A DNA stretch of 64,000 nt from Paracoccaceae bacterium (GTDB lineage: Bacteria > Pseudomonadota > Alphaproteobacteria > Rhodobacterales > Rhodobacteraceae): the NCBI GenBank assembly GCA_006226775.1, contig SBGD01000102.1, positions 22,186 through 86,185 of the forward strand. The letters are read 5' to 3'. The notes beneath the pieces are model-generated. The model searched no databases. It was given only the letters and a program-made list of their open reading frames with translations, and was not told the origin of the DNA. Shown piece after piece: positions 21,989-41,506 of the stretch. A program made the position numbers and the translations under genes. Every line of letters begins with the position of its first letter. Position 1 is the stretch's first letter.

Positions 21989-21999
21989 GTGTGTGCCCC

Positions 22000-22893: not shown

Positions 22894-22912
22894 TTTCTGT
22901 CCTTTCGGAAAC

Positions 22913-26988: not shown

Positions 26989-27000
26989 AAGGACCCCGAG

Positions 27001-27855
27001 ATGCATATCGCGCCGCATGACAACCAGAACAAACCCATCGTGGACGTGGACCACGACCTTGTACCGCTGAATTACTTCAATATCGTTACCCTGAAAAAGG
27101 GCGAGACATTCGACTATGCCGTGCCCGGCTACGAGACCTGCGTCGTGCCCGCCACCGGCACCGTTGACGTGGATGTCGAGGGCGCGGGCTTTGCCAAGCT
27201 GGGCAACCGCGGCGTGGATGTCTGGGATGGCGAGCCCGAGGGGGTCTATGTGCCCTCCGGTGCGAAAACCCGGCTGACCTGCATCAGCGAGACCGCGGAG
27301 GTCTTCATCGCCGGCGCGAAATACGACAAGGTGCTCGAGCCTTTCGAGGTGCGCGAAGCCGAGCTGGACCTGGTGCAATACGGCTCGGACGACACCAAGA
27401 CCCACCGCAAGATCAAGCACATCCTCGGCGCCGCCCAGCACGACAAGGTGGGCCGGTTGCTGGTCAGCGAGCTTTTCACCGTGGGGGCAGGGGGCTGGTC
27501 GGGCTTTCCGAGCCACAAGCACGACACCGACCGCTGGGAAGACGGCGAGATGATCGAATCGCGCCACGACGAGACCTACAACTTCCGCTTCCGGCCCAAC
27601 AAGGGCTCGGGCCTGCAGATGCTGCAACGCGAAGACAACGCGCCGGGCGACGCCTATCACATCATGGACCGCTCGACGATCCTGATCGACAAGGGCTATC
27701 ACCCCTGCTGCGCCCTGCCGGGCTACGAGATGTATTATTTCACCATCCTCGGCGGGCTCTCGCAGCGCTCGCTGAAACAGTATTTCCAGCCGACCCATGC
27801 CGAGCAATTGCACACCATTCCCGGCATCATGGACATGGTGGCCAAGTTCAAATGA
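27001..27855 (+). CDS. iolB: 5-deoxy-glucuronate isomerase
   Basis: A 284-residue IolB-family protein with two cupin-like domains that isomerises 5-deoxy-glucuronate to 2-deoxy-5-keto-gluconate. Family-typical stretches include SGFPSHKHD (metal-binding His residues), EETYNFRF-like DETYNFRFRP, and a C-terminal YHPCCALPGYEMYYFTILGG, all hallmarks of KduI/IolB-type isomerases. It lies 12 bases after iolC with an AGGA-type ribosome site, and its stop overlaps the iolJ start (ATGA). Confidence 0.92.
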   Translation: MHIAPHDNQNKPIVDVDHDLVPLNYFNIVTLKKGETFDYAVPGYETCVVPATGTVDVDVEGAGFAKLGNRGVDVWDGEPEGVYVPSGAKTRLTCISETAEVFIAGAKYDKVLEPFEVREAELDLVQYGSDDTKTHRKIKHILGAAQHDKVGRLLVSELFTVGAGGWSGFPSHKHDTDRWEDGEMIESRHDETYNFRFRPNKGSGLQMLQREDNAPGDAYHIMDRSTILIDKGYHPCCALPGYEMYYFTILGGLSQRSLKQYFQPTHAEQLHTIPGIMDMVAKFK

Positions 27856-28691
27856 CCCTGGTGACGCTGAAGGACGTCCTGCAACCGGCGCTGAACGGCG
27901 GCTATGCGGTGGCCGGGCTGGTAACGCTGGGCTGGGAGGACATGCGCGCCTTCGTGGCCGCAGCCGAGGCCGAGAATTGCCCGGTGATCCTGCAGGCCGG
28001 GCCGGGGTGCCGCGCGCATACGCCGCTGCCGGTGCTGGGGGCGATGTTCCGGAGCTTGGCGATGGGGGCCTCGGTGCCGGTGGTGGCGCATCTCGATCAT
28101 GGCTACACGGTCGAGGAGTGCCGGGAGGCGATCGACTGCGGGTTTTCTTCGGTGATGTTCGACGGCTCGCGCAAGCCCCTGGCGCAGAACATTGCCGAGA
28201 CCGCGGCGATTGCCGAGATGGCCCATGCGGCGGGGGTGTCCTGCGAGGGCGAGATCGGCTTTGTCGGCTATTCCGGCGGTGAGACCTCCGCCGGGACCGA
28301 CCCGGCAGAGGCGGCGCAGTTCGCCCGCGAAACCGGGGTGGATGCCATGGCGGTCTCGGTCGGCAACGTGCATCTGCAACAGGAAAGCGGCGCGGGGCTG
28401 GACGAGGCGCGCATCCGCGCCATCGAGGCCGTGACCGACGTGCCACTGGTGATCCACGGCGGATCGGGCGTGCCGCAGGCGCAGCGGACGCGGCTGGCGC
28501 GTGGGTCGGCGATCTGCAAGTTCAACATCGGCACCGAGTTGCGCATGGCCTTCGGAGCGGCGCTGCGCGCGGCGGTGACGCGCGATCCGGAGCGCTTCGA
28601 CCGGGTGGAGATCCTGTCGGAGACCCATGATCCGATGGTCGCCGCCACCCGCCAGGTGTTGCGGGCGTTCAAGGCGGCACCGCCGGGGTGA
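27852..28691 (+). CDS. iolJ: class II aldolase, 6-phospho-5-dehydro-2-deoxygluconate aldolase
   Basis: A 279-residue zinc-dependent class II fructose-bisphosphate-aldolase-family protein. His80-Leu-Asp82-His83 (VVAHLDHGYT) supplies the catalytic Asp and a zinc ligand. CEGEIGFVGY, SVGNVHL and VIHGGSGVP give the remaining metal and phosphate-binding parts. In the iol operon it should split the phosphorylated 2-deoxy-5-keto-gluconate into dihydroxyacetone phosphate and malonate semialdehyde. It overlaps iolB by 4 bases (ATGA). The next enzyme, iolA (methylmalonate-semialdehyde dehydrogenase), is not in the window. A 165-bp repeat follows. Confidence 0.85.
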   Translation: MTLVTLKDVLQPALNGGYAVAGLVTLGWEDMRAFVAAAEAENCPVILQAGPGCRAHTPLPVLGAMFRSLAMGASVPVVAHLDHGYTVEECREAIDCGFSSVMFDGSRKPLAQNIAETAAIAEMAHAAGVSCEGEIGFVGYSGGETSAGTDPAEAAQFARETGVDAMAVSVGNVHLQQESGAGLDEARIRAIEAVTDVPLVIHGGSGVPQAQRTRLARGSAICKFNIGTELRMAFGAALRAAVTRDPERFDRVEILSETHDPMVAATRQVLRAFKAAPPG

Positions 28692-28973: not shown

Positions 28974-30161
28974 TCAATGCGACCGCTTGCGCCCGTCCTG
29001 CTCGGCGATGGCCTGCGTCAGTCGCGCCAGGTCCCAGCCCTCGGCCAGCGCCTGGCGCAGCACGTCCTGCTGGCTGGGCGGCGCCATGCCCGAGAGCGGC
29101 GAGTCGATGTCGAGGTTGGCGGGGAAGGGATAGCCCTCTGCCGTCGCCGCCACCACGTTGTCACCCTCGCGCGCCGAAAGCCTCCCCGCCGCCAGCAGCG
29201 CTTTCAGATCCTCATAGGCGGCCAGGGTGATCCGGCTGCGGTCGACGATCTCGATCGAGCGGCCATAGGCCGAGCCGATCTGCATCAGGTTGGCGAAACG
29301 CTGGATGTCGGCGGTGGTATTGTCGCCCGCGGCATGAAAGGTCGCCGGGTTGAAGAACAGCATGTCGCCCTTGGCCAGCGGCAATTGCACGCAAGCCTCC
29401 TCGAAGAACGCGCGGAACTGCGGCAGCAGCACGGCGATATAGCCCGGCAGGTAGCTCTGCGAATAGGGCAGGAGCTTGGTCGGCCCGCTCGCCAGCGGCA
29501 TGTCGCTATGGGCCACGGCGCCTTGCAGGGTCAGCGCGGCCGAGAGCGCGTGTTGCGAGGCGGGATAGCCCTTGAGCGTCTCGACGTCCTGGAACCCCAT
29601 GTGGTAATCGCGATGTGCCACCTGCGCCTTGCCGCCGGGGCGCACGACATTGGCCTGAAAGGTGATCTGGTAGCCCGAGCCCAGCCAGCTTTCGCTGACC
29701 CTGCGGGTCAATTCATTGGCATTATAGCGCACATAGACCTCGGGCGCCTGCATGCAGAGCTTTTCATGCGCGTTCCACACCCGGCTGTTGGCGCCGGCGG
29801 CGGCGAAATGGTCGCCCTTGCCGGTGGAGCCGACCTCTTCCTCGCGGATGATCGCGTTCAACTGCTCGGTCACGGCATCCACCAAGGCCGGGTCGTCATA
29901 GCCCTTGCGGATCGCGATGATGCCGGGGCCCGACAGGAAGGCGCGGTTCCACTCGGCCATCACCAGGCGCGCCTGCGCCGGGTCGGCCATGGCGCGGCGC
30001 ATGGCGTCGCCGTCGTAGAGCGGGATCTTGTTGGCGATCTCGCTGGCATGGGGGTAATCCGCGGCCAGGGTCTCTTGCGCCACATGGCGCTTGAAGGCCT
30101 CAAGGTCGCAGGCACGGTCGTCAAGCCATACCGCGGGCTGGCCGGTCTGTTGGTCGAGCAT
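28974..30161 (-). CDS. phytanoyl-CoA dioxygenase (PhyH)-family protein
   Basis: A 395-residue Fe(II)/2-oxoglutarate-dependent dioxygenase of the PhyH superfamily. The iron-binding facial triad is visible as His183-x-Asp185 (VAHRDYHMGF) and His276 (PATFHAAGDN), and a distal Arg for 2-oxoglutarate is likely Arg288 (IQRFANLM). Members hydroxylate diverse small molecules, from phytanoyl-CoA to ectoine and halogenated metabolites, so the substrate cannot be named. It is divergent from a LacI-type regulator 94 bases away, which suggests control by a sugar-like inducer. No partner enzyme is adjacent, so it may form a two-gene unit with the regulator. Confidence 0.82.
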   Translation of the reverse strand: MLDQQTGQPAVWLDDRACDLEAFKRHVAQETLAADYPHASEIANKIPLYDGDAMRRAMADPAQARLVMAEWNRAFLSGPGIIAIRKGYDDPALVDAVTEQLNAIIREEEVGSTGKGDHFAAAGANSRVWNAHEKLCMQAPEVYVRYNANELTRRVSESWLGSGYQITFQANVVRPGGKAQVAHRDYHMGFQDVETLKGYPASQHALSAALTLQGAVAHSDMPLASGPTKLLPYSQSYLPGYIAVLLPQFRAFFEEACVQLPLAKGDMLFFNPATFHAAGDNTTADIQRFANLMQIGSAYGRSIEIVDRSRITLAAYEDLKALLAAGRLSAREGDNVVAATAEGYPFPANLDIDSPLSGMAPPSQQDVLRQALAEGWDLARLTQAIAEQDGRKRSH

Positions 30162-30255: not shown

Positions 30256-31287
30256 ATGGCACATCGCTTCTCGATCAAGGAAATCGCCCACCAGGCCGGG
30301 CTCAGCACCGCCACGGTCGACCGGGTGGTCCACAACCGCCCCGGCGTGCGCCGCCAGACGGTGAACCGCGTTCATGCCGCGATCCGCGAGCTGGAAGCCC
30401 AGGAGGCGCAGCTGGCGATGTCCGGGCGCAAGCTGATGATCGACCTGGTGGTCGAGGCGCCGCAGGCCTTCCTCGACGAACTGCAAGTGGCGCTGCGCCA
30501 CGAGTTGCCGCTGATCCAGACGGCGATCTTCCGCGCCCGCAGCGACCTGCGCGCGCGTTTTCCGATTGCGGCGATCGTCGCGGCGCTCGAGCGGGCGGCG
30601 CGGCTGAAAAGCGACGGGGTGATCCTGATGGCGCCCGATGCGGCGGCGATCCGGGCGGTGGTGGCGCGGCTGGTGGCGCAGGGCATTCCGGTGGTGACGC
30701 TGGCCACCGACATGCCGGGGTCGGCGCGGACCGGCTATGCCGGGCTCGACAATCCGCTGACCGGGCAGACCGCCGCCTGGCTGATGCGCCAGTGGCTGGC
30801 CGACCCGGCGCCGCACCTGGTCGTCACCCTGCGCAACGAGGCCTTTCGCGGCGAGGTCGAGCGCGAGGAGGGATTCCGCGCCGGGGTGGCGCGGCATTGG
30901 GCGGGGGCCGACCTGACCCTGCTGGTGCAGGGCAAGCAGGGCGCGGATTTCGCCGCCCGCGTGGCCGAGGTGTCGCGCGCGCGGCCGCCTGCCGGGCTTT
31001 ATTCCATCGGCGGCGGCAACCGCGCGCTGGTGCGGGCCTTCGGGCGGCTGGGGCTGCCGCGCCCGGTGATGATCGGCCATGACCTCGACCCGGAGAACCG
31101 GGCGCTGCTGGCGGATGGCGCGCTGGAGGCGGTGCTCTATCACGAGTTGACCGACGACATCCGCCAGGCCTTGCAGGTGTTCCTGTCGGTGCACAGCCAG
31201 GGCGCGGTGCCGATGCCCAAGGACGGCACGCCGCTGCGGGTGATGCTGCCGCCGATGCTGGCCGGGTCGGGGCCGGGCGAGGGATGA
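30256..31287 (+). CDS. LacI-family transcriptional regulator
   Basis: A 343-residue LacI/GalR regulator with an N-terminal helix-turn-helix (FSIKEIAHQAGLSTATVDRVVHNRPGVRRQTVNRVHAAIREL, residues 5-46) and a sugar-binding-protein-like effector domain. The TATVDRVVHNRPGV variant of the recognition region is typical of a rhizobial/rhodobacterial subgroup. The ATG at 30256 is used; upstream in-frame codons run into the divergent gene. It faces the PhyH-family gene and probably regulates it. It converges with the PfkB kinase of the neighbouring operon, which has its own ROK regulator. Confidence 0.87.
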   Translation: MAHRFSIKEIAHQAGLSTATVDRVVHNRPGVRRQTVNRVHAAIRELEAQEAQLAMSGRKLMIDLVVEAPQAFLDELQVALRHELPLIQTAIFRARSDLRARFPIAAIVAALERAARLKSDGVILMAPDAAAIRAVVARLVAQGIPVVTLATDMPGSARTGYAGLDNPLTGQTAAWLMRQWLADPAPHLVVTLRNEAFRGEVEREEGFRAGVARHWAGADLTLLVQGKQGADFAARVAEVSRARPPAGLYSIGGGNRALVRAFGRLGLPRPVMIGHDLDPENRALLADGALEAVLYHELTDDIRQALQVFLSVHSQGAVPMPKDGTPLRVMLPPMLAGSGPGEG

Positions 31288-31335: not shown

Positions 31336-32211
31336 TCAGGACTGCTGACCCAGTTCCGGCGCGCGGTGGAACCCGCCGCGTTGCGCGATGGCCTGCGCGC
31401 CCCGGGCGTTTCCGGCGCGCAGGCAGGCGCGCAGGTCGGCCCCGGAGAGCCAGGCGCTGAGGAACCCGGCGTTGAAGGCATCGCCCGCGCCGGTGGTGTC
31501 GACCACCGTGACCCGCTCGGCCGGGGCGTGGATCTCGCCCTGGTCGCTCAGCGCCGTCGCCCCCGCGGCGCCCTGCTTGATCGCGGTCAGCGGAAAGCGC
31601 GCGCGCGGCACGCCGATTTCCTCGAGATGCCGCACCTCGGCCGCGTTGGGCAGGAAGACATCGACCTCGGCCAGCACCTCGGCGATCCCGGCGGCGGCCA
31701 GCCCGTCGTCCCAGCTGCAATCGAGCGAGAGCGTCGCCCCGGCGGCGCGCGCCAGCGCGATGATCTCGGGCCGCTCGATCAGCGTCGCCAACTCGCCGAC
31801 ATGCACATGCGCCACCCCGAGCGCGGTGAGGTCGGCGACCTCGAGCCTGGGAAAGGCCGGGCCGCTGCGCCGGGTGACAAAGGCGCGGTCCTCGGCCCCG
31901 GCCAGCGCCACCGTCACCTGCGGATCGCTGCCCGGCGCCAGCGTCCGGCAGAGCCGCAGGTCGATGCCGACCTGGCCCAGGTCGTCGGACAGAAGCGCGC
32001 CGAACGGCCCCGGCGGCAGCATCGCGGCGAGTGCGGAGCCATGGCCCAGCGCCGCCAGATGCGCCGCGGTGATGAAGGCGCCGCCGCCGGCATGAACGCC
32101 GAAGCCCCCGGCATAGACCTCGGTGCCCAGCGTCGGCATCCGCGGCAGATCGGTAAAGATCAGGTCGCAGTAAAGCCGCCCGACGCTGAGGATCACGGGG
32201 CGGCCCGTCAC
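31336..32211 (-). CDS. PfkB-family carbohydrate kinase
   Basis: A 291-residue ribokinase-type sugar kinase, last gene of the minus-strand ABC/lyase operon. The GTG start at 32211 overlaps the ATPase stop (GTGA). N-terminal substrate-binding glycines appear in VHAGGGAFITAAHLAALG, and the C-terminal signature DTTGAGDAFNAGFLSAWL contains the catalytic Asp244. The family includes ribokinase, fructokinase, adenosine kinase and 2-keto-3-deoxygluconate kinase; the Gly-rich loop and length do not distinguish them. In this operon it most likely phosphorylates the sugar moiety released from the imported compound. Confidence 0.85.
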   Translation of the reverse strand: MTGRPVILSVGRLYCDLIFTDLPRMPTLGTEVYAGGFGVHAGGGAFITAAHLAALGHGSALAAMLPPGPFGALLSDDLGQVGIDLRLCRTLAPGSDPQVTVALAGAEDRAFVTRRSGPAFPRLEVADLTALGVAHVHVGELATLIERPEIIALARAAGATLSLDCSWDDGLAAAGIAEVLAEVDVFLPNAAEVRHLEEIGVPRARFPLTAIKQGAAGATALSDQGEIHAPAERVTVVDTTGAGDAFNAGFLSAWLSGADLRACLRAGNARGAQAIAQRGGFHRAPELGQQS

Positions 32212-33266
32212 CGCAGCGCCTCGCCGGTCGCGGCATCGAAGACGTGGATATTCTCCGGCGCGGCGCCGAGGTGGACCACCTCGCCGACCTCGGGCGGGGT
32301 GCGCCCGTCGGCCTTGGCGATCACGTCGCCATTGGCGGTCTCGACATAGATCAGCGTCTCGTGGCCCAGCGGTTCGCGCAAGTTTACCGCGCCCTCGATC
32401 ACCGCGGTGTCATGCCCGGTGTGCAGATCCTCGGGGCGGATGCCGAGGATGATGTCGCGCCCCTCGGGCAGCGCGCGGCCCAGATCCAGCGTCCCGCCGG
32501 TCGAGAGCGCCACCCCGCCGCCGGGCCGGGCCACGCCGGGGATCATGTTCATCGCCGGCGCGCCGATGAACCGCGCGACGAAGGTATTGGCGGGCTGGTG
32601 ATAGACCTCTGCGGGCGTGCCGACCTGCTGGATATGGCCGTCCTTCATGATGACGATGCGGTCGGCCATGGTCATCGCTTCCACCTGGTCATGGGTGACA
32701 AAGACGATGGTCGAGCCGACCCGCTGGTGCAGCTTCTTGATCTCGAGCCGCATCTGGGTGCGCAATTGCGCATCGAGGTTCGACAGGGGCTCGTCGAACA
32801 GGAAGACCGCCGGATCGCGCACCATGGCGCGGCCGATGGCGACGCGCTGGCGTTGCCCGCCCGACAGCTGGCTGGGCTTGCGGTCGAGGTAGGCGGTCAT
32901 GCCGAGCAGCTCCGCCACGCTCTCGATCCGCTTGTGTTTCTCGGCCTTCGGCGCCTTGGAACTGCGCAGCCCGAAGCCGATGTTCTTGCGCACGGTCATA
33001 TGCGGATAGATGGCGTAGTTCTGGAACACCATGGCGATGTCGCGGTCCTTGGGTTCGAGGTTGTTGACCACCCGCCCGGCGATCTCGATGGTGCCGGAGG
33101 TGACCTCTTCCAGCCCGGCGATCAGCCGCAGGGTGGTGGATTTGCCGCAGCCCGAGGGCCCGACGAAAACGACGAATTCACCGTCCTCGACCGCAAGGCT
33201 GATGCTGTGCAGCACCTCGGTCTTGTCGTAGCTCTTCACGAGGTCGCGCAGGACGAGATTGGCCAA
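32208..33266 (-). CDS. sugar ABC transporter ATP-binding protein (UgpC/MalK family)
   Basis: A 352-residue CUT1 ATPase with Walker A GPSGCGKST at 36-44, Q-loop Gln82, LSGGQ at 134-138, Walker B FLFDEP and a C-terminal TOBE region. It lies in the same operon as two CUT1 permeases and a binding protein but is separated from them by the lyase gene, which is unusual for such an operon. It overlaps the kinase gene by 4 bases and starts 3 bases after the lyase stop. Confidence 0.92.
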   Translation of the reverse strand: MANLVLRDLVKSYDKTEVLHSISLAVEDGEFVVFVGPSGCGKSTTLRLIAGLEEVTSGTIEIAGRVVNNLEPKDRDIAMVFQNYAIYPHMTVRKNIGFGLRSSKAPKAEKHKRIESVAELLGMTAYLDRKPSQLSGGQRQRVAIGRAMVRDPAVFLFDEPLSNLDAQLRTQMRLEIKKLHQRVGSTIVFVTHDQVEAMTMADRIVIMKDGHIQQVGTPAEVYHQPANTFVARFIGAPAMNMIPGVARPGGGVALSTGGTLDLGRALPEGRDIILGIRPEDLHTGHDTAVIEGAVNLREPLGHETLIYVETANGDVIAKADGRTPPEVGEVVHLGAAPENIHVFDAATGEALR

Positions 33267-33269
33267 GGC

Positions 33270-34754
33270 TCAGGTCTCCTGAAGCGTGGCGAAGGCGGCG
33301 GCGCGGGTGGCCGCGGCCTCGGCAATGCGGGTGGTCCGGCGGGCCTGCCGGGTGGCAAGATCGTCGGCGGTGATGCGGTAGAGCGCAAAGGTGGAAGCCA
33401 GCGCCTCGGGCGCCGGGCCGCCGGGGCGGGTGCGGCAGGCGACGAAGGTCTCGGGCGCGGTGGCCTTGGCGAAGGCGGGTTCGGTCAGCGTGGTCGCGCG
33501 CCCGGTCTCGGCGCGGAAGGCCTCGGCAAAGGCGGCGTGGCCCTGCCCCAGCGCCCGCCCCTCGCGGATCACCGCGGCGGCGGTGCGCGCGGCGATCTCA
33601 TGCGCCTGGCGGAAGCTGAGGCCCTCGTCGCGCACCAGCGTGTCGGCCAGTTCGGTGATGGTGATGCAGGCGGCCTCGGTGGTCCGGCGCACCCGCTCGG
33701 CATTGATCGAGCACGCCGGCAGCAAGGCCGTGAGCAGCGCCAGCACCCGCCCGCCGCTGTCGAAGGCGGCATAGCCGGCCTGCTGCACCTCGCCCTCGCT
33801 GTCGTTCATGTCGGTGAACGGCGTGTTGTGCATGGTGTTGACGATCGTGTCACAGCGCCCGACGGTGACGCTGGACAGGTGCCGCAGGTGCTCGATCGGC
33901 ACCGGGTTGCGCTTCTGCGGCATGATCGAGGAGACCTGGACGAGGCTGTTGGGCACGTAGAGCTGGCCGACCTCGAAGGCGGCCCAGAATTGCAGGTCCT
34001 GGATCAGACGGCCGAGATGCAGGAACACCAGTTTCACCGCGGAATAAAGCCCGGTGACGTAATCCACCGCCGCGATGCAGCCATAGGAGTTGAGCAAAGG
34101 CCCCTCGAACCCCAGCAGATCGGCCACAAGCCCCCGGTCGATGGGAAAGCCCGAGGTGGTGATCGCCGCCGCGCCCATCGGGCAATGGCCCAGCGCCTCG
34201 ATGGCGGCATCCAGCCGCTCGGCATCACGCAACAGCACCTCGATCACCGCGCCGAGGTAATGCCCGAAGGTCGAGGGCTGCGCCGGCTGGCCATGGGTAT
34301 AGGCGACGATCAGGGTGGTCTTCTCGGCCTCGGCCTTGGCGATCAGCGCGCGGGCGAGATCGAGGATCTGGCCCTGCATCTGCTCGGCCCTCTCGCGCAG
34401 CGCCATCTTGAACAGCGTATGATCCATGTCATTGCGCGAGCGCGCGGTATGCAGCGCGCCGCCGAGGTCTCCGAGCCGGGCCCGCAATTCGGCCTCGACG
34501 AGAAAGAAGTAATCCTCGTGCTCGCCGGTATAGGTCAGGGCCTCGATATCGACCTCGGCGTCGATCTCGCGCAGGGCGGTCGCGATCCGCCCCGCATCCC
34601 GCGGCCCCAGGATGCCGGTCTCTGCCAGCATCACCAGATGTGCGCGGTTGATCGCACCCATGTGCGCCGCGTAGTGCCGCTTGACCCCCTCGAAGAGCGG
34701 CGCCAGCACGGTGTTGCGGTAGGTCGGATCGGGGAATTTGGAGGTATCGCTCAT
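33270..34754 (-). CDS. argininosuccinate lyase-like enzyme of the fumarase/aspartase superfamily
   Basis: A 494-residue lyase. Superfamily motifs are clear: HTARSRND at 102-109, the general acid/base region THGQPAQPSTFGHYL (about 153-167) and the signature SSIMPQKRNP at 275-284, with the catalytic Ser at 275 or 276. Such enzymes cleave a C-N (or C-O, C-S) bond and release fumarate. Housekeeping argininosuccinate lyase lies with arg genes; this one is inside a sugar ABC operon (TGATG/ATGA overlaps with the permease) and next to a kinase, so a catabolic substrate is more likely. The argininosuccinate-lyase-like EDDS lyase of Chelativorans is a precedent for recruitment to other substrates. The true substrate is unknown. 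Confidence 0.8.
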   Translation of the reverse strand: MSDTSKFPDPTYRNTVLAPLFEGVKRHYAAHMGAINRAHLVMLAETGILGPRDAGRIATALREIDAEVDIEALTYTGEHEDYFFLVEAELRARLGDLGGALHTARSRNDMDHTLFKMALRERAEQMQGQILDLARALIAKAEAEKTTLIVAYTHGQPAQPSTFGHYLGAVIEVLLRDAERLDAAIEALGHCPMGAAAITTSGFPIDRGLVADLLGFEGPLLNSYGCIAAVDYVTGLYSAVKLVFLHLGRLIQDLQFWAAFEVGQLYVPNSLVQVSSIMPQKRNPVPIEHLRHLSSVTVGRCDTIVNTMHNTPFTDMNDSEGEVQQAGYAAFDSGGRVLALLTALLPACSINAERVRRTTEAACITITELADTLVRDEGLSFRQAHEIAARTAAAVIREGRALGQGHAAFAEAFRAETGRATTLTEPAFAKATAPETFVACRTRPGGPAPEALASTFALYRITADDLATRQARRTTRIAEAAATRAAAFATLQET

Positions 34755-35635
34755 CCCTTCAACCCCGCCATGACAACCCCGCGGATGATGAACCGCTGGA
34801 AAATGAGAAAGACGATCAGCGTCGGAATGGTCGAGATCGCCGCCCCTGTCATGATCAACTCCCAGGCCACGTCGGCCTCGTCGCCGAAGGAGGACAGGCC
34901 CACCGGCAATGTATACATCTCGACCGAATTGGTGACGATCAGCGGCCAGATGAAGGCGGTCCAGTTGCCGAGAAAGACGAAGATCGCGAGCGCCGCCAGC
35001 GCGGGCCGCACCAGCGGCATGGCGACGGTCCACCAGATCTGCAACTCGTTGAGCCCGTCGATCCGCGCGGCCTCGATGAAATCGTCCGGCACGGTCTCGA
35101 AGAACTGTTTCATCAGGAAAGTGCCGAAGGCGGTCATCAACCCCGGAAACATGATGCCCCAGTAGGTGTCGAGCCAACCGAATTGCTGGCTCATCAGGTA
35201 CCAGGGGATCACCAGCATCTCGGTCGGGATCATCAGCGTCGAGAGGATGGCGATGAAGACGATGTAGCGGCCCGGAAAGCGGAACTTGCAGAGCGTGTAG
35301 CCCACCAGGCTGTCGAAGAGCACGCTGGAAATCGTGGTGATCACCGCGATCACGATGGAATTGAGAAACCACCAGTAGAAGCGCCCGTCTTCCAGCACAT
35401 AGGTGTAGTTCTCGAGGGTCGGCTCTTCGGGAATGAAGTTGAGGTTGTAGACCTCATGCGGCCATTTCAGCGAGGTCGAGATCATGAAGGCAATCGGCAT
35501 CACCATCAGCACGCCGCCCGCGAAAAGCAGCAGGAAGCGCAGGATCTGCCCCATGTTGCGCGGTGGCTTGCCGGGACCGTCGCGCAAAAGCGCCTCGGAG
35601 CTGGGCTTGATCGCGATTTCGTCGGTGACGGCCAT
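34751..35635 (-). CDS. sugar ABC transporter permease (MalG/UgpE type)
   Basis: A 294-residue CUT1 inner-membrane permease with about six hydrophobic segments. The EAA loop FIEAARIDGLNELQIWWTVAMPLVRPALAALAIFVFL contains the conserved EAAxIDG. The C-terminal RFIIRGVVMAGLKG is the standard MalG-type ending. It overlaps the first permease gene by one base (TGATG) and the lyase gene by four (ATGA), so all are translated from one mRNA. Confidence 0.92.
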   Translation of the reverse strand: MAVTDEIAIKPSSEALLRDGPGKPPRNMGQILRFLLLFAGGVLMVMPIAFMISTSLKWPHEVYNLNFIPEEPTLENYTYVLEDGRFYWWFLNSIVIAVITTISSVLFDSLVGYTLCKFRFPGRYIVFIAILSTLMIPTEMLVIPWYLMSQQFGWLDTYWGIMFPGLMTAFGTFLMKQFFETVPDDFIEAARIDGLNELQIWWTVAMPLVRPALAALAIFVFLGNWTAFIWPLIVTNSVEMYTLPVGLSSFGDEADVAWELIMTGAAISTIPTLIVFLIFQRFIIRGVVMAGLKG

Positions 35636-36528
35636 CAGCGGTCCCTCAGGATGCGCAATTGCAAGAGGCTCACCACCAGCAGCACCAGAAACAGCACCAC
35701 GGTCTGCGCCGCCGCATAGCCCATGTCGAAGGAGTTGAAGGCGGTCTGGTAGATCATCAGCACCAAGGGCTTGGTCGAGTTCAGCGGCCCGCCGGGGTTC
35801 TGCGTCGTCATGTTGTAGACATGGTCGAAGATGCGCAAAAAGCCGATGGAGGAAAACACCACGATGAAGACGATGGTGGGCTTGAGAAGCGGCAGGGTGA
35901 TCTCCCAGAGCACGGTCCAGGTCGAGACACCGTCGATCCGCGCCGCCTCGTAATAGCTTTTCGGGATCGCGCGCAGCCCGGCCATGAAGATGATGATCTG
36001 AAAGCCCAACCCCGCCCAGACCGCCGGCGCCAGGATCGCGGGCAAGGCATTGGTGGTGGAGTTCAGGAAGTTGATCTGCGGGATGCCCAGCGAGGCGAGG
36101 AAGTTGTTGAAAAGCCCGATCGGCACCGGCTGGTAGAACCAGCGCCAGACCCAGGCCATGGCCACGGCAGAGGTCATGAAAGGCAGGAAATAGAGCATCC
36201 GCAGGAAGCCATGCAGGAACCGCGTCTTGTCGAGGTGATAGGCCACCACGAAGGAGATCACGAGGCTGACCGGCGTGCCCAGCAGCAGGTAGACGAAGGT
36301 ATTGCGGAAGACCTTCCAGAATACCGGATCGGCGAAGAGTTTCTGGTAATTGTCGAGGCCCGTCCAGGTGCGCGCGCCCAGCAGGTTCCAGTCCTGGAAG
36401 CTGATCAATATGGCATTGCCGGTGGGATAGAAGCGGATCACGCCGTAAAACAGCACCGGGATGGCCAGAAAGGCCCAGGCCCAGGCGATCTGTTTCTGGC
36501 GGATGGTGAGATCGCGGTAGAGCTTCAT
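35635..36528 (-). CDS. sugar ABC transporter permease (MalF/UgpA type)
   Basis: A 297-residue CUT1 permease with about six hydrophobic segments and the EAA loop YYEAARIDGVSTWTVLWEITLPLLKPTIVFIVVFSSIGF. It forms a heterodimer with the following permease. It starts 53 bases downstream of the binding-protein gene, after an intercistronic hairpin that probably keeps its expression below that of the binding protein. Confidence 0.92.
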   Translation of the reverse strand: MKLYRDLTIRQKQIAWAWAFLAIPVLFYGVIRFYPTGNAILISFQDWNLLGARTWTGLDNYQKLFADPVFWKVFRNTFVYLLLGTPVSLVISFVVAYHLDKTRFLHGFLRMLYFLPFMTSAVAMAWVWRWFYQPVPIGLFNNFLASLGIPQINFLNSTTNALPAILAPAVWAGLGFQIIIFMAGLRAIPKSYYEAARIDGVSTWTVLWEITLPLLKPTIVFIVVFSSIGFLRIFDHVYNMTTQNPGGPLNSTKPLVLMIYQTAFNSFDMGYAAAQTVVLFLVLLVVSLLQLRILRDR

Positions 36529-36549
36529 CGGTCCCCCCGGCGCTGAATT

Positions 36550-36573
36550 GCCCCGGCCACATCGGGCCGGGGC
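36550..36573 (-). terminator. hairpin between binding-protein and permease genes
   Basis: Perfect 9-bp stem GCCCCGGCC (36550-36558) / GGCCGGGGC (36565-36573), loop of 6. This is the typical position of a stabilising or partial-termination stem after a periplasmic binding-protein gene. Confidence 0.55.
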
Positions 36574-36581
36574 GCGTCGCC

Positions 36582-37841
36582 TTACTTGGTGTAGTATGCG
36601 TCGAGCAGCTTCTGCTCGGCCTCGGCGGCCTGGGCGAGGCTGTCGGCGGCGGACATGCCTTGCAGCTGCATCCGCTCGACCATCTCCACCATCAGCTGAC
36701 GCTGGCCGCTTTCATCGGCGAACTTGGTGGTATGGGCATATTCCAGCCCGCGGATGAACGGGCCGAAGACCGGATCGTTGGCGTTCTTCTCGGTCATGCC
36801 GACCGAGGGTTTCGCGGGCAGCTCGCCCACCACGTCGAGCCAGATCTGCATCGCCTCGTCCGAGGTCACGTAGTCCATGAACTTCACCGCGGCGTCGTAT
36901 TTCTCGCCCTCGGCTTTCGTCGTGATCGCGTTCACCCAGTAGGAGGAGTAATTCGACCGCTCGCCCTCGGCATTGGCCGGAAGCTCGGTCACCCCCCATT
37001 TCAGCCCGCGGATATCGGCCAGCGCGCCGATGCGGAACGACCCGTCGATATGCATCCCGGCGCGGCCCGCCTTGAAGGCGGCCTGCGGCTCGTCCATGAA
37101 GCCGATGGCGGTGACCGGCTCGTCGCCCATGAACATGTTGGTGTAGAATTCCAGCGCTTTCAGCCCGGCCTCGGTATTGTAGTTCACGGTCTTGTAGTCG
37201 TCGAGGTAAGGCTCGCCGCCCATCTGCCGCACCAGCCCCTCGCGCCACCAATGGTGATCCTGCGCGGTCATGCCCGCGGTCATGCCGACCTGGGTGATAT
37301 TGCCCGCGCCGTCGCGCTTGGTCATGGCGGCGGCGGCGCTCATCAGCTCGTCCAGCGTGGTCGGGGGCGCGACCCCGGCCTCTTCCATGAGGCGTTCGTT
37401 GTAGAACAGCGCCAGAGAGCGGACGGCCGTGGGCAGCGCCCAGTATTGGTCGCCCTCCTTCATCGCCTGGACCATCGGGAAGAACTCTTCGTCGATCCGG
37501 TCGGCGGGAAAGACATCCGCCGGCAGCGGCTGGATCAGCTCGGCCTCGACGTAGTCGTTGAGCCAGCCGTAGAACAATTGCACCACGTCCGGCCCCTCGC
37601 CCGCCGGAATCGCCGCGGCGACCTTGGTGCGGTAATCGGCATAGGGGAAATGCGTCATCTTGACGGTGATGTCGGGGTTGGCGGCCTCGAACCCCTCGAT
37701 CAGCTGCTCCATCGCGGTGACGCGGGCGTCGAAGAAATACTGCCAGTATTCGATCTCGACCGCATTCGCCACCGATCCCGCAAGCGCGGCAACACTGGTG
37801 GCCGACGCAAGGGCCAGCGCCCTCAGTCTCTTGATTTTCAT
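36582..37841 (-). CDS. sugar ABC transporter extracellular substrate-binding protein
   Basis: A 419-residue CUT1 (family 1) solute-binding protein with a signal peptide (MKIKRLRALALASATSVAAL..., cleavage after AGSVANA, about residue 27). The mature part has the usual lobes, with IEYWQYFFD at the N-terminus, FYNERLMEEAGVAPPTTLDELMSAAAAMT and FMDYVTSDEAMQIWLD. It is first in the operon of two permeases, lyase, ATPase and PfkB kinase. Its promoter region lies in the divergent gap with the ROK regulator. The nature of the ligand is inferred only from the downstream enzymes (lyase releasing fumarate, kinase) and the divergent deacetylase. Confidence 0.9.
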   Translation of the reverse strand: MKIKRLRALALASATSVAALAGSVANAVEIEYWQYFFDARVTAMEQLIEGFEAANPDITVKMTHFPYADYRTKVAAAIPAGEGPDVVQLFYGWLNDYVEAELIQPLPADVFPADRIDEEFFPMVQAMKEGDQYWALPTAVRSLALFYNERLMEEAGVAPPTTLDELMSAAAAMTKRDGAGNITQVGMTAGMTAQDHHWWREGLVRQMGGEPYLDDYKTVNYNTEAGLKALEFYTNMFMGDEPVTAIGFMDEPQAAFKAGRAGMHIDGSFRIGALADIRGLKWGVTELPANAEGERSNYSSYWVNAITTKAEGEKYDAAVKFMDYVTSDEAMQIWLDVVGELPAKPSVGMTEKNANDPVFGPFIRGLEYAHTTKFADESGQRQLMVEMVERMQLQGMSAADSLAQAAEAEQKLLDAYYTK

Positions 37842-37908
37842 GGTTTTCCTCCCCGGTTGGTTCCCCGGCCCGCGCGGCTGCGATGCGGCGGGTCCGCGTG
37901 TGACTGCA

Positions 37909-37935
37909 ATTAACTCAACTGTATTGAGCTTTAAT
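37909..37935. promoter_or_regulatory. operator and promoter candidate for ROK-controlled divergon
   Basis: Inverted repeat CTCAA (37914-37918) / TTGAG (37924-37928) embedded in a wider ATTAA...TTTAAT symmetry, in the 126-base gap between the ABC operon and the ROK gene. On the minus strand TTGACA (37940-37935) is a good -35 element whose spacer would be covered by the palindrome. It is a likely ROK-binding site. Confidence 0.5.
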
Positions 37936-37967
37936 GTCAAGTGCGCTACCTCCGAAGGATGATGTCG

Positions 37968-39140
37968 ATGACCGAAACCTTTGTCGGCGCCAATGCCCTG
38001 CGCGCGCGCAGCCACAACCGCCAGGTGGTGCTGGGCCATATCCGCAGGGCCGGGCAGACCGGGCGGGCCGAGATTGCCCGCGCCTCGGGGCTGTCGATCC
38101 AGGCGGTGTCGAACATCATTGCCGACCTGCTCACCGACGGGCTGATCGTCGAACAGGGCCGCCGCGCCTCGGCGCGCGGCCAGCCGCCGGTGCAATATGC
38201 GTTGCACCCCTCGGGCGGTTTCGCGCTGGGGGTCGAGGTGCGGCCCGATGCGGTCTTTGCCGCGGTGCTCGATCTCTGCGGCACGCGGCTTGGCGCCGAG
38301 CGCGCACCGCTGCCCGCCACCGACCGCGCCAGCATCACCCGCGCGGTGGTCGGGCTTTGCGCGCGGGTTCTCGCGGCGTCGAAGACGCCGAAGGCCCGCG
38401 TGCTGGGCGCCGGCGTGGTGATGCCCGGGCCCTTCGGGCGCACCGGCATCCTCGGCCACGGGTCGGACCTCGACAGCTGGGACGACACCGCGCCCGACGC
38501 CTGGTTTTCCCGCGCGCTCGACCTGCCGGTGGTGGTCGAGAACGACGCCAATGCCGCCGCCATGGCCGAACGCATCGCCGGGGTGGCGCAGGGGCTGGAC
38601 ACCTATGCCTTTCTCTACTTCGGCTCGGGGCTCGGCCTCGGCTCGGTCCACAAGGGGCGGCTGATCGCGGGTGCCCAGGGCAATGCCGGCGAGATCGGCC
38701 ATATCCCGGTGCCCGCCGCAGGCCGCACCGTGGCGCTGGAAAGCCTGGTCAGCCGCCTGTCGGTGCAGCGCGCGCTGCAGGCCGCGGGCATCGAGGTCTC
38801 CAGCGGGGACGAGATCACCCGGCTTTACGAGGCCCGCAACCCGGTGCTGCTGGCCTGGCTCGATGCCGCGACCGAGCCCTTGTCGGCGGCGGTGACCATT
38901 GTCGAGAACCTGCTTGATCCGCAATGCGTGATCCTCGGCGGCGCCATGCCCGATGCGCTCCTCGATCACCTGCTGGGTTCGGTGCGCCTCTCGCCGCGTT
39001 CGGTGGCCGAGCGCGCGGGGCGGAGCCATCCGCGCCTGCTGCGCGGCGCCTCGGGGCGGATGACGGCGACGCTGGGCGCCGCGGCGCTGGTGCTCAACCA
39101 GGCCTTCACCCCGCAGATCGCGGTCCAGAGCCAGGAGTGA
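37968..39140 (+). CDS. ROK-family transcriptional regulator (NagC/Mlc/XylR-like)
   Basis: A 390-residue protein with an N-terminal winged helix (about 15-65; GRAEIARASGLSIQAVSNIIADLLTDGLIVEQG) and a C-terminal ROK sugar-kinase-like domain (DPxxxG-type LGAGVVMPGPFG, ENDANAAAMAE, GNAGEIGHIPV). The cysteine zinc motif CxCGxxGC of canonical ROK proteins is missing after GEIGH, which here runs straight into PVPAAGRTVALES. Lack of the zinc finger argues against sugar kinase activity. ATG 37968 has AAGGA 8 bases upstream; ATGs at 37959 and 37962 and a GTG at 37941 are alternatives. It probably represses the divergent ABC/lyase operon in response to a sugar ligand and is co-transcribed with the deacetylase gene. 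Confidence 0.82.
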   Translation: MTETFVGANALRARSHNRQVVLGHIRRAGQTGRAEIARASGLSIQAVSNIIADLLTDGLIVEQGRRASARGQPPVQYALHPSGGFALGVEVRPDAVFAAVLDLCGTRLGAERAPLPATDRASITRAVVGLCARVLAASKTPKARVLGAGVVMPGPFGRTGILGHGSDLDSWDDTAPDAWFSRALDLPVVVENDANAAAMAERIAGVAQGLDTYAFLYFGSGLGLGSVHKGRLIAGAQGNAGEIGHIPVPAAGRTVALESLVSRLSVQRALQAAGIEVSSGDEITRLYEARNPVLLAWLDAATEPLSAAVTIVENLLDPQCVILGGAMPDALLDHLLGSVRLSPRSVAERAGRSHPRLLRGASGRMTATLGAAALVLNQAFTPQIAVQSQE

Positions 39141-39142
39141 CC

Positions 39143-41506
39143 ATGCCGACACCCGAACAGTCCCGCATCATGGAGGACCGCGCCCGCCCGCGGCTGCTGG
39201 AGCTTTGGTGGGCGCTGCGCCCGCTGACCTCGGTGATCCGCTTCATGCAGTCCGGCGCGCATCCCGATGACGAGCATTCCGGCATGCTGGCGGCGCTGGG
39301 GTTCCGCGACGGGCTGAACCTCTCCTACGCCTGTTCGACCCGTGGCGAGGGCGGCCAGAACGACATCGGCACCGAGGCGGGCGCCGATCTGGGCGCGCTG
39401 CGCACGCGCGAGATGGAGCGGGCCTGCGACATTCTGGGGATGCGCATGTACTGGCATTCCGAGAGCCCGGACGATCCGATCCATGATTTCGGTTTCTCAA
39501 AGAGCGGGGTCGAGACGCTGGGCCATTGGGGGCATCAGCGCACCCTGGCGCGCTTTGTCGAGATCGTGCGCACCGAACGGCCCGATATCCTCTGCCCCAC
39601 CTTCCTCGACGTGCCGGGCCAGCACGGCCATCACCGCGCCATGACCCAGGCCGCGCATGAGGTCATGGCGGCCGCCGCCGATCCCGCGTATCCCTCGAAC
39701 CTGCCGCCCTGGCAGGTGGCCAAGCTCTACCTGCCCGCCATCTCCGGCGCGGGGCAGGCCTATGACGACGATCTGCCGCCGCCACCCGCGACGCTGAGGG
39801 TCGAGGGCGCGGGGCGCGATCCGGTCAGCGGCTGGACCTGGGACCGCATCGGCCAGCAATCGCGCGCCTTTCATCGCACGCAAGGCATGGGGCGCTGGGT
39901 CGGGTCGGGCGAGTCCGAGGGCTGGCCGCTGCACCTGGCCGAAAGCCATGTGCCGGGGCCGGATGTGGCGCTTTCCTCCGGGCTGCCGGCAACGCTGGGC
40001 GATCTGGCGGACCTGCCCGAGGCGGTGCCGGTTGCCGATGATCTGCGCGCGGCGCAACGCGGTATCGACGAAGCGCTCGCCGCCTTTCCCGCCGACCCCC
40101 GCGTTGCAAGGGCGGCACTGCAGGCGCTGGCGGCAGTGCGCAAGGCCCGGGCGGAATGTCCCGAGGCGGCGCGCGATCAACTGCTGCACCGGCTCGACGC
40201 CAAGGCGGTGCAGCTCGGACATGTCATCCGCCTCGCCCTGGGCATCGAGGCCTGCGCCCGGACAGAAGAGACCTTCCTGACCCCCGGCCAGTCCACCGCT
40301 CTCATCGTCGAGACCCACACCGGCGATGCCGAGGCCATCCACGTGGATTTCGACCTGCCCGAGGGCTGGCGGGTGACCGGCGACAGCCTCGCCATTGCCG
40401 CCGACGCAGGCGCCAGCGATCCTTACCGCAGCACATACGACCCCGCGGCACCCGAAGCCCCGGCGCTCTGCCTGACCTTCGAGGCCCATGGCACAAGCGT
40501 CGAGACCCGCCTGCCCTTCGATCCCGAGCCGGTGATCCTGCCCGCCCGCAGCGCGCAGGTGACGCCGCAAAGGGCGCTGATCAACCTCGCGGGCCAGCGG
40601 CGGAGCCTCGACATCGCCATCCGCGATATCCATCCCGAAGGTGCGCGGGCCGACCTCGCCCCGCCCCCGGGCTGGCGGATCGCGCGGGAAGCGGCAAGCG
40701 CCCGGCTTACCCTGCCCGATACTGCCGAGGCGGGGCTTCATGTCCTGCCGCTGCGCCTTGACGGGCACCCGGCGTCCAGCCTCACCCGCATCACCCATCC
40801 CCATGTCGCGCCCACCGCGCGGGCGCATCCGGCGGAGGTGCAGGTGCGGGTGCTCGATGTGACGGTGCCGCATGTCCGTGTCGGCTATGTCGGCGCAGGC
40901 AACGACCGGGTCGATCACTGGCTCTCGGCCCTTGGCGCCGATGTCACCGCGCTCTCCGATGCCGACCTGCAGGACGAAGCCGCGCTGGCCGAATACGGCG
41001 CCATCGTCATCGGCATCTTCGCCATGCGCTTCCGCCCCGGGCTGACCGAGGCCATGCCCCGCCTGCACCGCTGGACCGAGGCGGGCGGCACGCTGGTCAC
41101 GCTCTATCACCGGCCCTGGGACAATTGGGATGCCGCGCGCATCCCGCCGCGGCGGCTGGAGATCGGCCAGCCCTCGCTGCGCTGGCGCGTCACCGACGAG
41201 ACCGCCGAGGTACGCCACTTGGTCGAACATCCGATCCTGCAAACCCCCAACCGGATCACGCCCGAGGACTGGACGGGCTGGGTCAAGGAACGCGGGCTCT
41301 ATTTCGCCAAAAGCTGGGACGAGAGCTACACCCCGCTGCTGGAAATGGCCGACCCGGGCGAAGCGCCCCTGCAAGGCGCGCTGCTGGTGGCAGAGATCGG
41401 CGAGGGGCGGCATGTGCATTGCGCGCTGATCCTGCATCACCAGATGGAGCACCTGGTGCCCGGCGCCTTTCGCCTGATGGCCAACCTGATCGCGCCGCGG
41501 GGGTGA
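39143..41506 (+). CDS. large PIG-L/LmbE-family deacetylase with C-terminal extension
   Basis: A 787-residue protein. The N-terminal 250 residues form a PIG-L/LmbE zinc-dependent N-deacetylase, with the motif AHPDDEH (His40, Asp42, Asp43, His45) and the HGHH cluster (His161-His164) supplying the zinc ligands and base. Family members remove N-acetyl groups from amino sugars (GlcNAc-PI, mycothiol and bacillithiol intermediates). The rest is not typical: a middle part (about 370-570) of beta-rich sequence and a C-terminal part (about 580-787; VRVGYVGAGNDRVDHWLSALGADVTALSDADL) that looks like a ThuA/class I glutamine-amidotransferase-like fold. No signal peptide is visible. It starts 2 bases after the ROK gene. 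In context it should deacetylate the substrate imported by the divergent ABC system. Confidence 0.8.
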   Translation: MPTPEQSRIMEDRARPRLLELWWALRPLTSVIRFMQSGAHPDDEHSGMLAALGFRDGLNLSYACSTRGEGGQNDIGTEAGADLGALRTREMERACDILGMRMYWHSESPDDPIHDFGFSKSGVETLGHWGHQRTLARFVEIVRTERPDILCPTFLDVPGQHGHHRAMTQAAHEVMAAAADPAYPSNLPPWQVAKLYLPAISGAGQAYDDDLPPPPATLRVEGAGRDPVSGWTWDRIGQQSRAFHRTQGMGRWVGSGESEGWPLHLAESHVPGPDVALSSGLPATLGDLADLPEAVPVADDLRAAQRGIDEALAAFPADPRVARAALQALAAVRKARAECPEAARDQLLHRLDAKAVQLGHVIRLALGIEACARTEETFLTPGQSTALIVETHTGDAEAIHVDFDLPEGWRVTGDSLAIAADAGASDPYRSTYDPAAPEAPALCLTFEAHGTSVETRLPFDPEPVILPARSAQVTPQRALINLAGQRRSLDIAIRDIHPEGARADLAPPPGWRIAREAASARLTLPDTAEAGLHVLPLRLDGHPASSLTRITHPHVAPTARAHPAEVQVRVLDVTVPHVRVGYVGAGNDRVDHWLSALGADVTALSDADLQDEAALAEYGAIVIGIFAMRFRPGLTEAMPRLHRWTEAGGTLVTLYHRPWDNWDAARIPPRRLEIGQPSLRWRVTDETAEVRHLVEHPILQTPNRITPEDWTGWVKERGLYFAKSWDESYTPLLEMADPGEAPLQGALLVAEIGEGRHVHCALILHHQMEHLVPGAFRLMANLIAPRG

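What the first reader, a model, noticed from the sequence alone, without database searches (positions are those of the whole stretch)
31336..41506. Unassigned catabolic system: sugar ABC importer, argininosuccinate-lyase-like enzyme, PfkB kinase, ROK regulator and large PIG-L deacetylase
Seen: one tightly overlapping minus-strand operon (binding protein, two permeases, ASL-like lyase, ATPase, PfkB kinase) opposite a ROK regulator and a 787-residue PIG-L/LmbE protein. Known: PIG-L enzymes remove N-acetyl groups from amino sugars, and ASL-superfamily enzymes release fumarate by eliminating an amine (or, in relatives, another leaving group). Inference: the imported compound may carry an N-acetylated sugar joined to a succinyl/malyl-type group. 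After deacetylation, the lyase would release fumarate and the kinase would phosphorylate the sugar. A malyl- or aspartyl-linked aminosugar (compare bacillithiol intermediates) is one candidate. I know of no described pathway with this gene set. The lyase sitting between permease and ATPase genes argues that it is central.
Basis: partly seen in the sequence, partly recalled or inferred. Interest (0 to 1): 0.72.

Follow-up and report, generated by a model that had tools for sequence, protein, structure and literature searches.

The report
Predicted bacillithiol salvage gene cluster
A block of eight genes, whose core is kept together in more than a hundred related bacteria, likely imports bacillithiol (an antioxidant thiol of other bacteria) or its glucosamine-malate core and is predicted to break it down to glucosamine and fumarate, with a relative of argininosuccinate lyase doing the cut that a sugar-cleaving enzyme would normally do.

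Summary
In detail: a minus-strand operon (binding protein, two permeases, ASL-like lyase, ATPase, PfkB kinase) lies opposite a ROK regulator and a 787-aa PIG-L protein. The lyase is not the housekeeping argH, which is a second gene here and in 10 of 10 relatives tested. PIG-L adjoins the lyase in 114 of 120 distinct loci (5 of the 6 misses are cut by a contig end). Operons that run on past the kinase slot gain a glucosamine-6-phosphate-deaminase-like protein of two unrelated types (13 and 5 of 120), mostly behind two unrelated kinases; three gain a thiol-dioxygenase-like protein. Plasmids of Deinococcus, a bacillithiol-making lineage, carry the same system with an extra MshB/Mca-like PIG-L. 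The lyase keeps its fumarate-side residues but has a different leaving-group side. I read it as predicted salvage of bacillithiol or its glucosaminyl-malate core: PIG-L cuts the amide, the lyase expels glucosamine from the malyl group as fumarate forms, the kinase feeds glucosamine-6-phosphate onward. A glucosamine conjugate is well supported; bacillithiol itself is an inference (about 0.5).

The parts
31336..32211 (-). PfkB-family sugar kinase, predicted glucosamine 6-kinase
   Evidence: PF00294 111 bits; no NCBIfam equivalog cut-off reached; followed by a NagB-II-like protein in 13 of 120 distinct loci
32208..33266 (-). ABC importer ATPase (UgpC/MalK type)
   Evidence: NF008653 488.5 bits, over its cut-off of 432
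33270..34754 (-). ASL-superfamily lyase, predicted fumarate-releasing lyase for a glucosaminyl-malate
   Evidence: PF00206 + PF14698; apart from housekeeping argH in the tree; fold nearest EDDS lyase, then ASL
34751..35635 (-). ABC importer permease 2
   Evidence: PF00528
35635..36528 (-). ABC importer permease 1
   Evidence: PF00528
36582..37841 (-). sugar-type solute-binding protein
   Evidence: PF13416/PF01547; best-scoring solved relative is GacH, an acarbose/maltose-binding protein
37842..37967 (.). 126-base divergent region between binding-protein and ROK genes, expected to hold promoters and operator
   Evidence: gene coordinates; no site was tested
37968..39140 (+). ROK-family protein with N-terminal winged helix, predicted regulator
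   Evidence: PF00480 + PF13412; NagC and Mlc models 76 and 66 bits, under cut-off
39143..41506 (+). 787-aa PIG-L (LmbE-like) protein with beta domains and a C-terminal ThuA/GATase-like domain; predicted to cut the N-acyl-glucosamine amide

Best explanation
The eight genes at 31336-41506 are predicted to form one import-and-breakdown pathway for a glucosaminyl-malate compound, most likely bacillithiol (cysteinyl-glucosaminyl-malate), N-methyl-bacillithiol, an S-conjugate, or their glucosaminyl-malate core. (1) The ABC importer would bring the compound in. (2) The PIG-L enzyme would hydrolyse the amide on the glucosamine nitrogen, giving cysteine (or acetate, if the compound is the N-acetyl form) and glucosaminyl-malate. 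(3) The ASL-like lyase would take a proton from the malyl CH2 and expel the sugar's anomeric oxygen, giving fumarate and glucosamine, so that no glycosidase is needed. (4) The PfkB kinase would make glucosamine-6-phosphate, and a deaminase (in the operon in some relatives) would turn it into fructose-6-phosphate and ammonia. (5) Cysteine would be exported (EamA) or oxidised (thiol dioxygenase) in relatives that carry these genes. The ROK protein would be the sugar-responsive repressor. Shown by calls: gene families, conserved linkage, a lyase distinct from argH, deaminase-like and thiol-dioxygenase-like genes in some relatives' operons, and no BshC gene found in the 16 locus-bearing genomes tested. 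Inferred: every reaction, every substrate, and the order of steps.
Confidence: 0.5

Rival explanations
1. The compound is a sugar-aspartate (Heyns or Amadori product, for example N-(1,2-dicarboxyethyl)glucosamine); the lyase is a C-N lyase like EDDS lyase and releases fumarate plus glucosamine directly, and PIG-L removes a further acyl group.
For: EDDS lyase is the nearest fold. A 33%-identical ASL-like gene on Cereibacter sphaeroides plasmid pB lies with genes annotated fructoselysine 6-kinase, asparaginase and SIS protein, an Amadori-type set. Loci without PIG-L would need no further gene.
Against: PIG-L is near the lyase in 114 of 120 loci. EDDS lyase's D290, one of six residues close to its substrate (PMC12363623, passages), is an invariant V285 here. 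The Cereibacter protein lacks the NPVxxEHxR and HNxPFxDxND signatures of this family and Deinococcus.
Confidence: 0.18
2. The lyase is an S-(2-succino) lyase: it removes fumarate from a succinated sugar thiol, and PIG-L then frees the thiol, as part of repair or sulfur salvage.
For: [quoted passage not shown] The best match of one of the two thiol-dioxygenase-like proteins tested is mercaptosuccinate dioxygenase (the other's is 3-mercaptopropionate dioxygenase).
Against: It leaves the sugar kinase and the deaminases without a role unless another enzyme frees the sugar. No acetyltransferase was recognised among the named genes of the operon chains (eight chains hold a gene I did not name there). 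2SL sequences were not at hand for comparison.
Confidence: 0.1
3. An ordinary amino-sugar importer and catabolic operon (chitobiose or peptidoglycan type) in which PIG-L deacetylates an N-acetylglucosamine oligosaccharide; the lyase serves a side reaction.
For: Chitobiose deacetylases are among the nearest PIG-L folds and the best sequence matches to the PIG-L profile in the PDB; the ROK regulator resembles NagC, under cut-off; a 40%-identical PIG-L in L092 lies without the lyase, near NagB-II-like and MurQ-like genes.
Against: Of 14 loci fetched through PIG-L, 13 hold the lyase, while kinase, deaminase, PIG-L type and importer type vary around the pair. No glycosidase was recognised among the named genes of the operon chains.
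Confidence: 0.1
4. The lyase is argininosuccinate lyase for arginine synthesis or salvage.
For: It scores 291.7 bits on TIGR00838, just over the cut-off of 279.5.
Against: A housekeeping argH of 585-612 bits exists beside it in the window's genome and in 10 of 10 others; separate groups in the tree; the ASL loop YxKDxQEDK is replaced.
Confidence: 0.02

Closest known systems
Bacillithiol-conjugate amidase Bca and mycothiol-conjugate amidase Mca / deacetylases BshB and MshB (LmbE-like, PIG-L)
   Different: 787 aa with added beta and ThuA/GATase-like domains; sequence scores on Mca, MshB and BshB2 models are low (22-27 bits); sits in a catabolic import operon, and BshC was not found in 16 hosts
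EDDS lyase of Chelativorans (C-N lyase, ASL superfamily)
   Same: nearest fold, 27% identity; R112, N113 and N288 have counterparts R107, N108 and N283
   Different: D290 becomes V285, Q159 becomes H154; the operon holds sugar genes
S-(2-succino) lyase 2SL
   Same: lyase class I enzyme serving catabolism, in clusters with an ABC importer and a deacetylase (PMC9706529, text parts 1-3 of 6)
   Different: sugar kinase here, and deaminase in some relatives; no acetyltransferase recognised; sequences could not be compared
Fructose-asparagine / fructoselysine utilisation (Fra, Frl; recalled)
   Same: importer, PfkB kinase and SIS protein; on Cereibacter plasmid pB such a set has an ASL-like gene
   Different: no PIG-L listed there; that ASL-like protein lacks two of this family's signatures

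Membership tests
Housekeeping argininosuccinate lyase (ArgH) | only or main argH of the genome, inside the argH clade | tested here: not met
   second argH of 600 bits in the genome, 10 of 10 other genomes alike, separate groups 99/99
ASL/fumarase superfamily | SSxMPxKxNP loop, RSRND and THxQxAQP motifs with catalytic Ser and His | tested here: met
   S275, S276, M278, P279, K281, N283, P284, R105-D109, T153, H154 invariant in 35 rows and shared with argH; catalytic roles recalled
ASL/fumarase superfamily | releases fumarate (or a like product) | not testable with these tools
   needs an assay
LmbE-like (PIG-L) hydrolases | HxDD + H metal motif | tested here: met
   H40-P41-D42-D43 and H161/H163/H164 invariant in 40 rows; PF02585 over cut-off
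BshB / Mca / MshB subfamilies | NCBIfam equivalog cut-off | tested here: not met
   Mca 27.0, MshB 26.4, BshB2 22.4 bits, all far under cut-off
BshB (substrate recognition) | Arg53 and Arg109 contact N-acetylglucosaminyl-malate | tested here: inconclusive
   R87 can stand for Arg53; Q160 stands at Arg109, by eye only (residues from PMC4101496)
CUT1 sugar ABC importer | MalK/UgpC-type ATPase, two permeases, family 1 binding protein | tested here: met
   UgpC model 488.5 bits over 432; PF00528 twice; PF13416/PF01547
2SL S-(2-succino) lyase | acts on N-acetyl-S-(2-succino)cysteine; lies in a yxe locus | tested here: inconclusive
Bacillithiol breakdown pathway (proposed) | substrate is bacillithiol or glucosaminyl-malate | not testable with these tools
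   supported only by gene content and folds

The most novel reading that the evidence does not exclude
This is the first catabolic pathway for bacillithiol: Alphaproteobacteria, and Deinococcus plasmids, import the thiol (or its glucosaminyl-malate core), and a new ASL-superfamily enzyme breaks a sugar-malate glycosidic bond by beta-elimination, releasing fumarate and free glucosamine without a glycosidase.
Probability: 0.45. Interest if true: 0.85.

Novelty: new variant of a known kind. Interest (0 to 1): 0.7.

Why it matters
[quoted passage not shown] The titles and abstract openings listed (12 of 14 papers; 10 of 13; 8 of 8; 2 of 2) name no pathway that uses bacillithiol as food; only openly licensed papers were searched. 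If true, a dedicated salvage route exists in 60 of 393 sampled genera of one family, linking thiol-making and thiol-eating bacteria. It would also add a new reaction, with a sugar as leaving group, to the argininosuccinate lyase superfamily. Many copies are labelled argH, argininosuccinate lyase, in public records, which can mislead reconstructions of arginine synthesis. It is directly testable with two purified enzymes and one synthetic substrate.

Tried and rejected
Housekeeping argH: rejected. A role for the neighbouring LacI regulator and PhyH protein: rejected, no tblastn match to either in any of 80 loci at E 1e-10. Mycothiol as substrate was considered (inositol genes lie next door in the window) but gives the lyase no substrate. 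GlcNAc-asparagine was considered: elimination at the aspartyl alpha-carbon would not free the sugar. Fold matches shown for the PIG-L model cover mainly residues 30-272 and 480-787; the part between is barely tested. BshC was sought in 16 genomes only, and not in the Deinococcus strains. NagB-I and the thiol dioxygenase were not sought in the window's own genome. The first literature search and the first EDDS search found no paper; one search listed 15 of 28 papers, none on the lyase that I was after, which I then opened by DOI. In one search nine loci were skipped by a script fault; they were included in the repeat on which the counts rest. The NagB-II control matched 14 of 14 control genomes (none over cut-off; GlmS is related), so that model is weak evidence. 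A 120-locus count treats loci as one if a 390-residue stretch of the lyase is identical (13 of 133 dropped).

Papers: PMC9706529 abstract, passages and text parts 1-3 of 6; PMC6282198, PMC5270733, PMC7954711 and PMC12363623 passages; PMC4101496 passages and section 2.6; others only as search listings. Recalled, from no call: the exact structure of bacillithiol (cysteinyl amide, alpha-glycoside of L-malate), the roles of individual ASL residues, EamA proteins exporting cysteine, and the Fra/Frl pathway details.
Full report
OBSERVATION. The window (67% G+C) lies in a genome of 4.58 Mb; the nearest named loci are alphaproteobacteria such as Tropicimonas. Minus-strand genes overlap by 1-4 bases or are 3 bases apart, apart from a 53-base gap before the binding-protein gene; the ROK and PIG-L genes run the other way from a 126-base divergent region.

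THE LYASE IS NOT ARGH. The genome has a second gene that scores 600.5 bits on the argH model; this one scores 291.7 (cut-off 279.5). Ten further locus-bearing genomes all show the same pair, 585-612 against 247-306 bits. In a tree of 35 rows (30 different), 21 locus lyases and 11 argH are split by a 99/99 branch (the 3 other rows have long branches and uncertain places).

LINKAGE. A scan of one genome for each of 84,980 species gave 497 relatives, of which the best 80 were kept. In 75 of the 80, PIG-L lies in the same place; the other five are cut by a contig end. Of 41 relatives, 10 have PIG-L and the same 10 have the lyase. In 394 genomes of the family (393 genera), 60 have the lyase. Sparser samples had PIG-L in 5 of 398 genomes of the phylum and 10 of 385 of the class. 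I fetched 14 loci because of a PIG-L match, of which 13 hold the lyase, and 40 of the 60. Over all 134 loci, 133 have the lyase and 120 are distinct; near the lyase lie PIG-L in 114, ROK in 100, PfkB in 84 and EamA in 73. Most of these loci were chosen by the lyase, so its own presence is no finding. The only uncut exception for PIG-L is G771, which has no PF02585 match at all. Among plasmids, 21 of 21 records with PIG-L over at least 80% of its length hold the lyase (59% identity or more), and 21 of 27 records with the lyase at 52% or more hold PIG-L. LacI and PhyH, the window's next genes on one side, have no match in any of the 80 loci.

WHAT JOINS THE OPERON ELSEWHERE. On the same strand behind the ATPase, 81 of 120 chains have PfkB; 13 of these also carry an SIS protein, 11 directly behind PfkB and 2 behind the thiol protein. 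Four such SIS proteins were tested: the best NCBIfam match is glucosamine-6-phosphate deaminase NagB-II (173-256 bits, under the cut-off of 430). Nine chains have a ROK protein in the kinase slot; one of these (L128) carries a helix-turn-helix domain and is a regulator, and of the other eight the four tested have the ROK domain alone. Four of the nine are followed by a NagB protein, and one chain has NagB with no kinase: 5 of 5 match PF01182, one passes the curated nagB cut-off, four do not. On a plasmid of Paroceanicella the gene is annotated nagB, and in Roseomonas a ROK protein and an SIS protein follow the ATPase. Two unrelated kinases and two unrelated deaminases in the same slots make glucosamine-6-phosphate the likely product (inference). 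Eight other chains carry a single unrelated or unnamed extra gene each. In 3 of 120 loci a 172-178-aa protein without a Pfam match follows PfkB; the two tested are nearest mercaptosuccinate dioxygenase (E 1.7e-8) and 3-mercaptopropionate dioxygenase (E 9.1e-8), with cysteine dioxygenases behind. Eight loci, with GSTs 93-100% identical to each other's reference and so close kin, have a GST behind the ATPase; the one tested is best matched by a glutathione-dependent disulfide oxidoreductase model, under cut-off. Thirteen have a small VOC protein nearby, mostly just before the lyase, whose role I cannot explain.

DEINOCOCCUS. Two tblastn searches of plasmids showed the pair on Deinococcus plasmids. 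D. wulumuqiensis, D. ficus and D. actinosclerus have ROK, lyase, large PIG-L, binding protein, two permeases, a second PIG-L of 276-281 aa and a carbohydrate kinase in one row; D. deserti lacks the large PIG-L; D. psychrotolerans and D. aetherius show only lyase and importer there, with a large PIG-L on another plasmid in D. psychrotolerans. For D. wulumuqiensis the binding protein is 45% and the permeases 45% and 55% identical to the window's. The small PIG-L matches MshB (145-161 bits) and Mca (106-124 bits) in 4 of 4 tested; the large one of D. wulumuqiensis is best matched by BshB1 (58 bits); all stay under cut-off. Bacillithiol synthesis is described for the Deinococcus-Thermus lineage (PMC6282198, passages); I did not test it in these strains. 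The six Deinococcus lyases are 33-36% identical to the window's, hardly more than argH is (32%), but all share the signatures EDxFF, YTHxQPAQP, MPQKRNPVxxEHxR and HNxPFxDxND, which argH, the Haladaptatus and the Cereibacter proteins lack in whole or part.

READING. LmbE-like enzymes reviewed in 2014 cut N-acetyl or N-acyl groups from glucosamine cores (PMC4101496). If PIG-L holds the glucosamine nitrogen, the group the lyase acts on must sit elsewhere on the sugar; a malyl group on the anomeric oxygen, as in bacillithiol (structure recalled; the BshB entry 6p2t is named N-acetyl-alpha-D-glucosaminyl L-malate deacetylase 1), is the one known natural arrangement I can name that would give fumarate and glucosamine. 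Cysteine, amide, glucosamine and malate then each have a matching gene: thiol dioxygenase or exporter in some relatives, PIG-L, kinase plus deaminase, lyase. BshC was found in 0 of 16 hosts, so salvage from other organisms is meant; the marine Polaribacter MED152 makes N-methyl-bacillithiol at about 1,150 pmol per mg dry weight (PMC6282198).

AGAINST. Loci without PIG-L exist (G771, and 7 of 13 named plasmid loci opened), which fits import of bare glucosaminyl-malate but equally fits rival 1. The thiol gene is rare, the deaminases occur in 18 of 120 loci, and the NagB-II assignment is weak by score. BshB's Arg109 is not seen in PIG-L by eye alignment. Nothing biochemical has been done.

Noticed in passing
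window 24146-28691 (+), with 20855-24016 (-): An inositol catabolism set lies next door: IolD passes its curated cut-off (791.5 over 715 bits) and so does IolC (309.5 over 300); IolB-like, aldolase and inositol/levoglucosan dehydrogenase-like genes lie with it, under cut-off.
   Followed up: partly
window 28974-30161 (-): PhyH-family dioxygenase beside a LacI regulator (30256-31287); no match to either in any of 80 related loci, so probably a separate module.
   Followed up: partly
L183 (Cereibacter sphaeroides 2.4.1 plasmid pB): Another ASL-like gene annotated argH lies with genes annotated fructoselysine 6-kinase, asparaginase, amino-acid importer and SIS protein: an apparent Amadori-product operon with its own unexplained lyase.
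   Followed up: partly
L009, L012, L048 and others, between permease 2 and the lyase: A small VOC protein of about 150 aa (Glyoxalase Pfam match and weak FosA-like match in L048), role unknown; near the lyase in 13 of 120 distinct loci.
   Followed up: partly
L092 8516-10741: A 40%-identical PIG-L without the lyase, near NagB-II-like, MurQ-like and MltA-like genes and an apparent peptide importer (the last three named by my reading of the sequence).
   Followed up: no
L088, L091: Lyase plus PIG-L beside what reads like an oligopeptide-type importer instead of the sugar-type one; no family search was run on it.
   Followed up: no
L182 (Haladaptatus plasmid): An ASL-like gene lies beside genes annotated exo-alpha-sialidase, MFS transporter and mandelate racemase family in an archaeon; another unassigned lyase context.
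   Followed up: no
window 45165-46757 (+): CcoN of a cbb3-type cytochrome oxidase, over its cut-off (597.8 over 583.15 bits).
   Followed up: no
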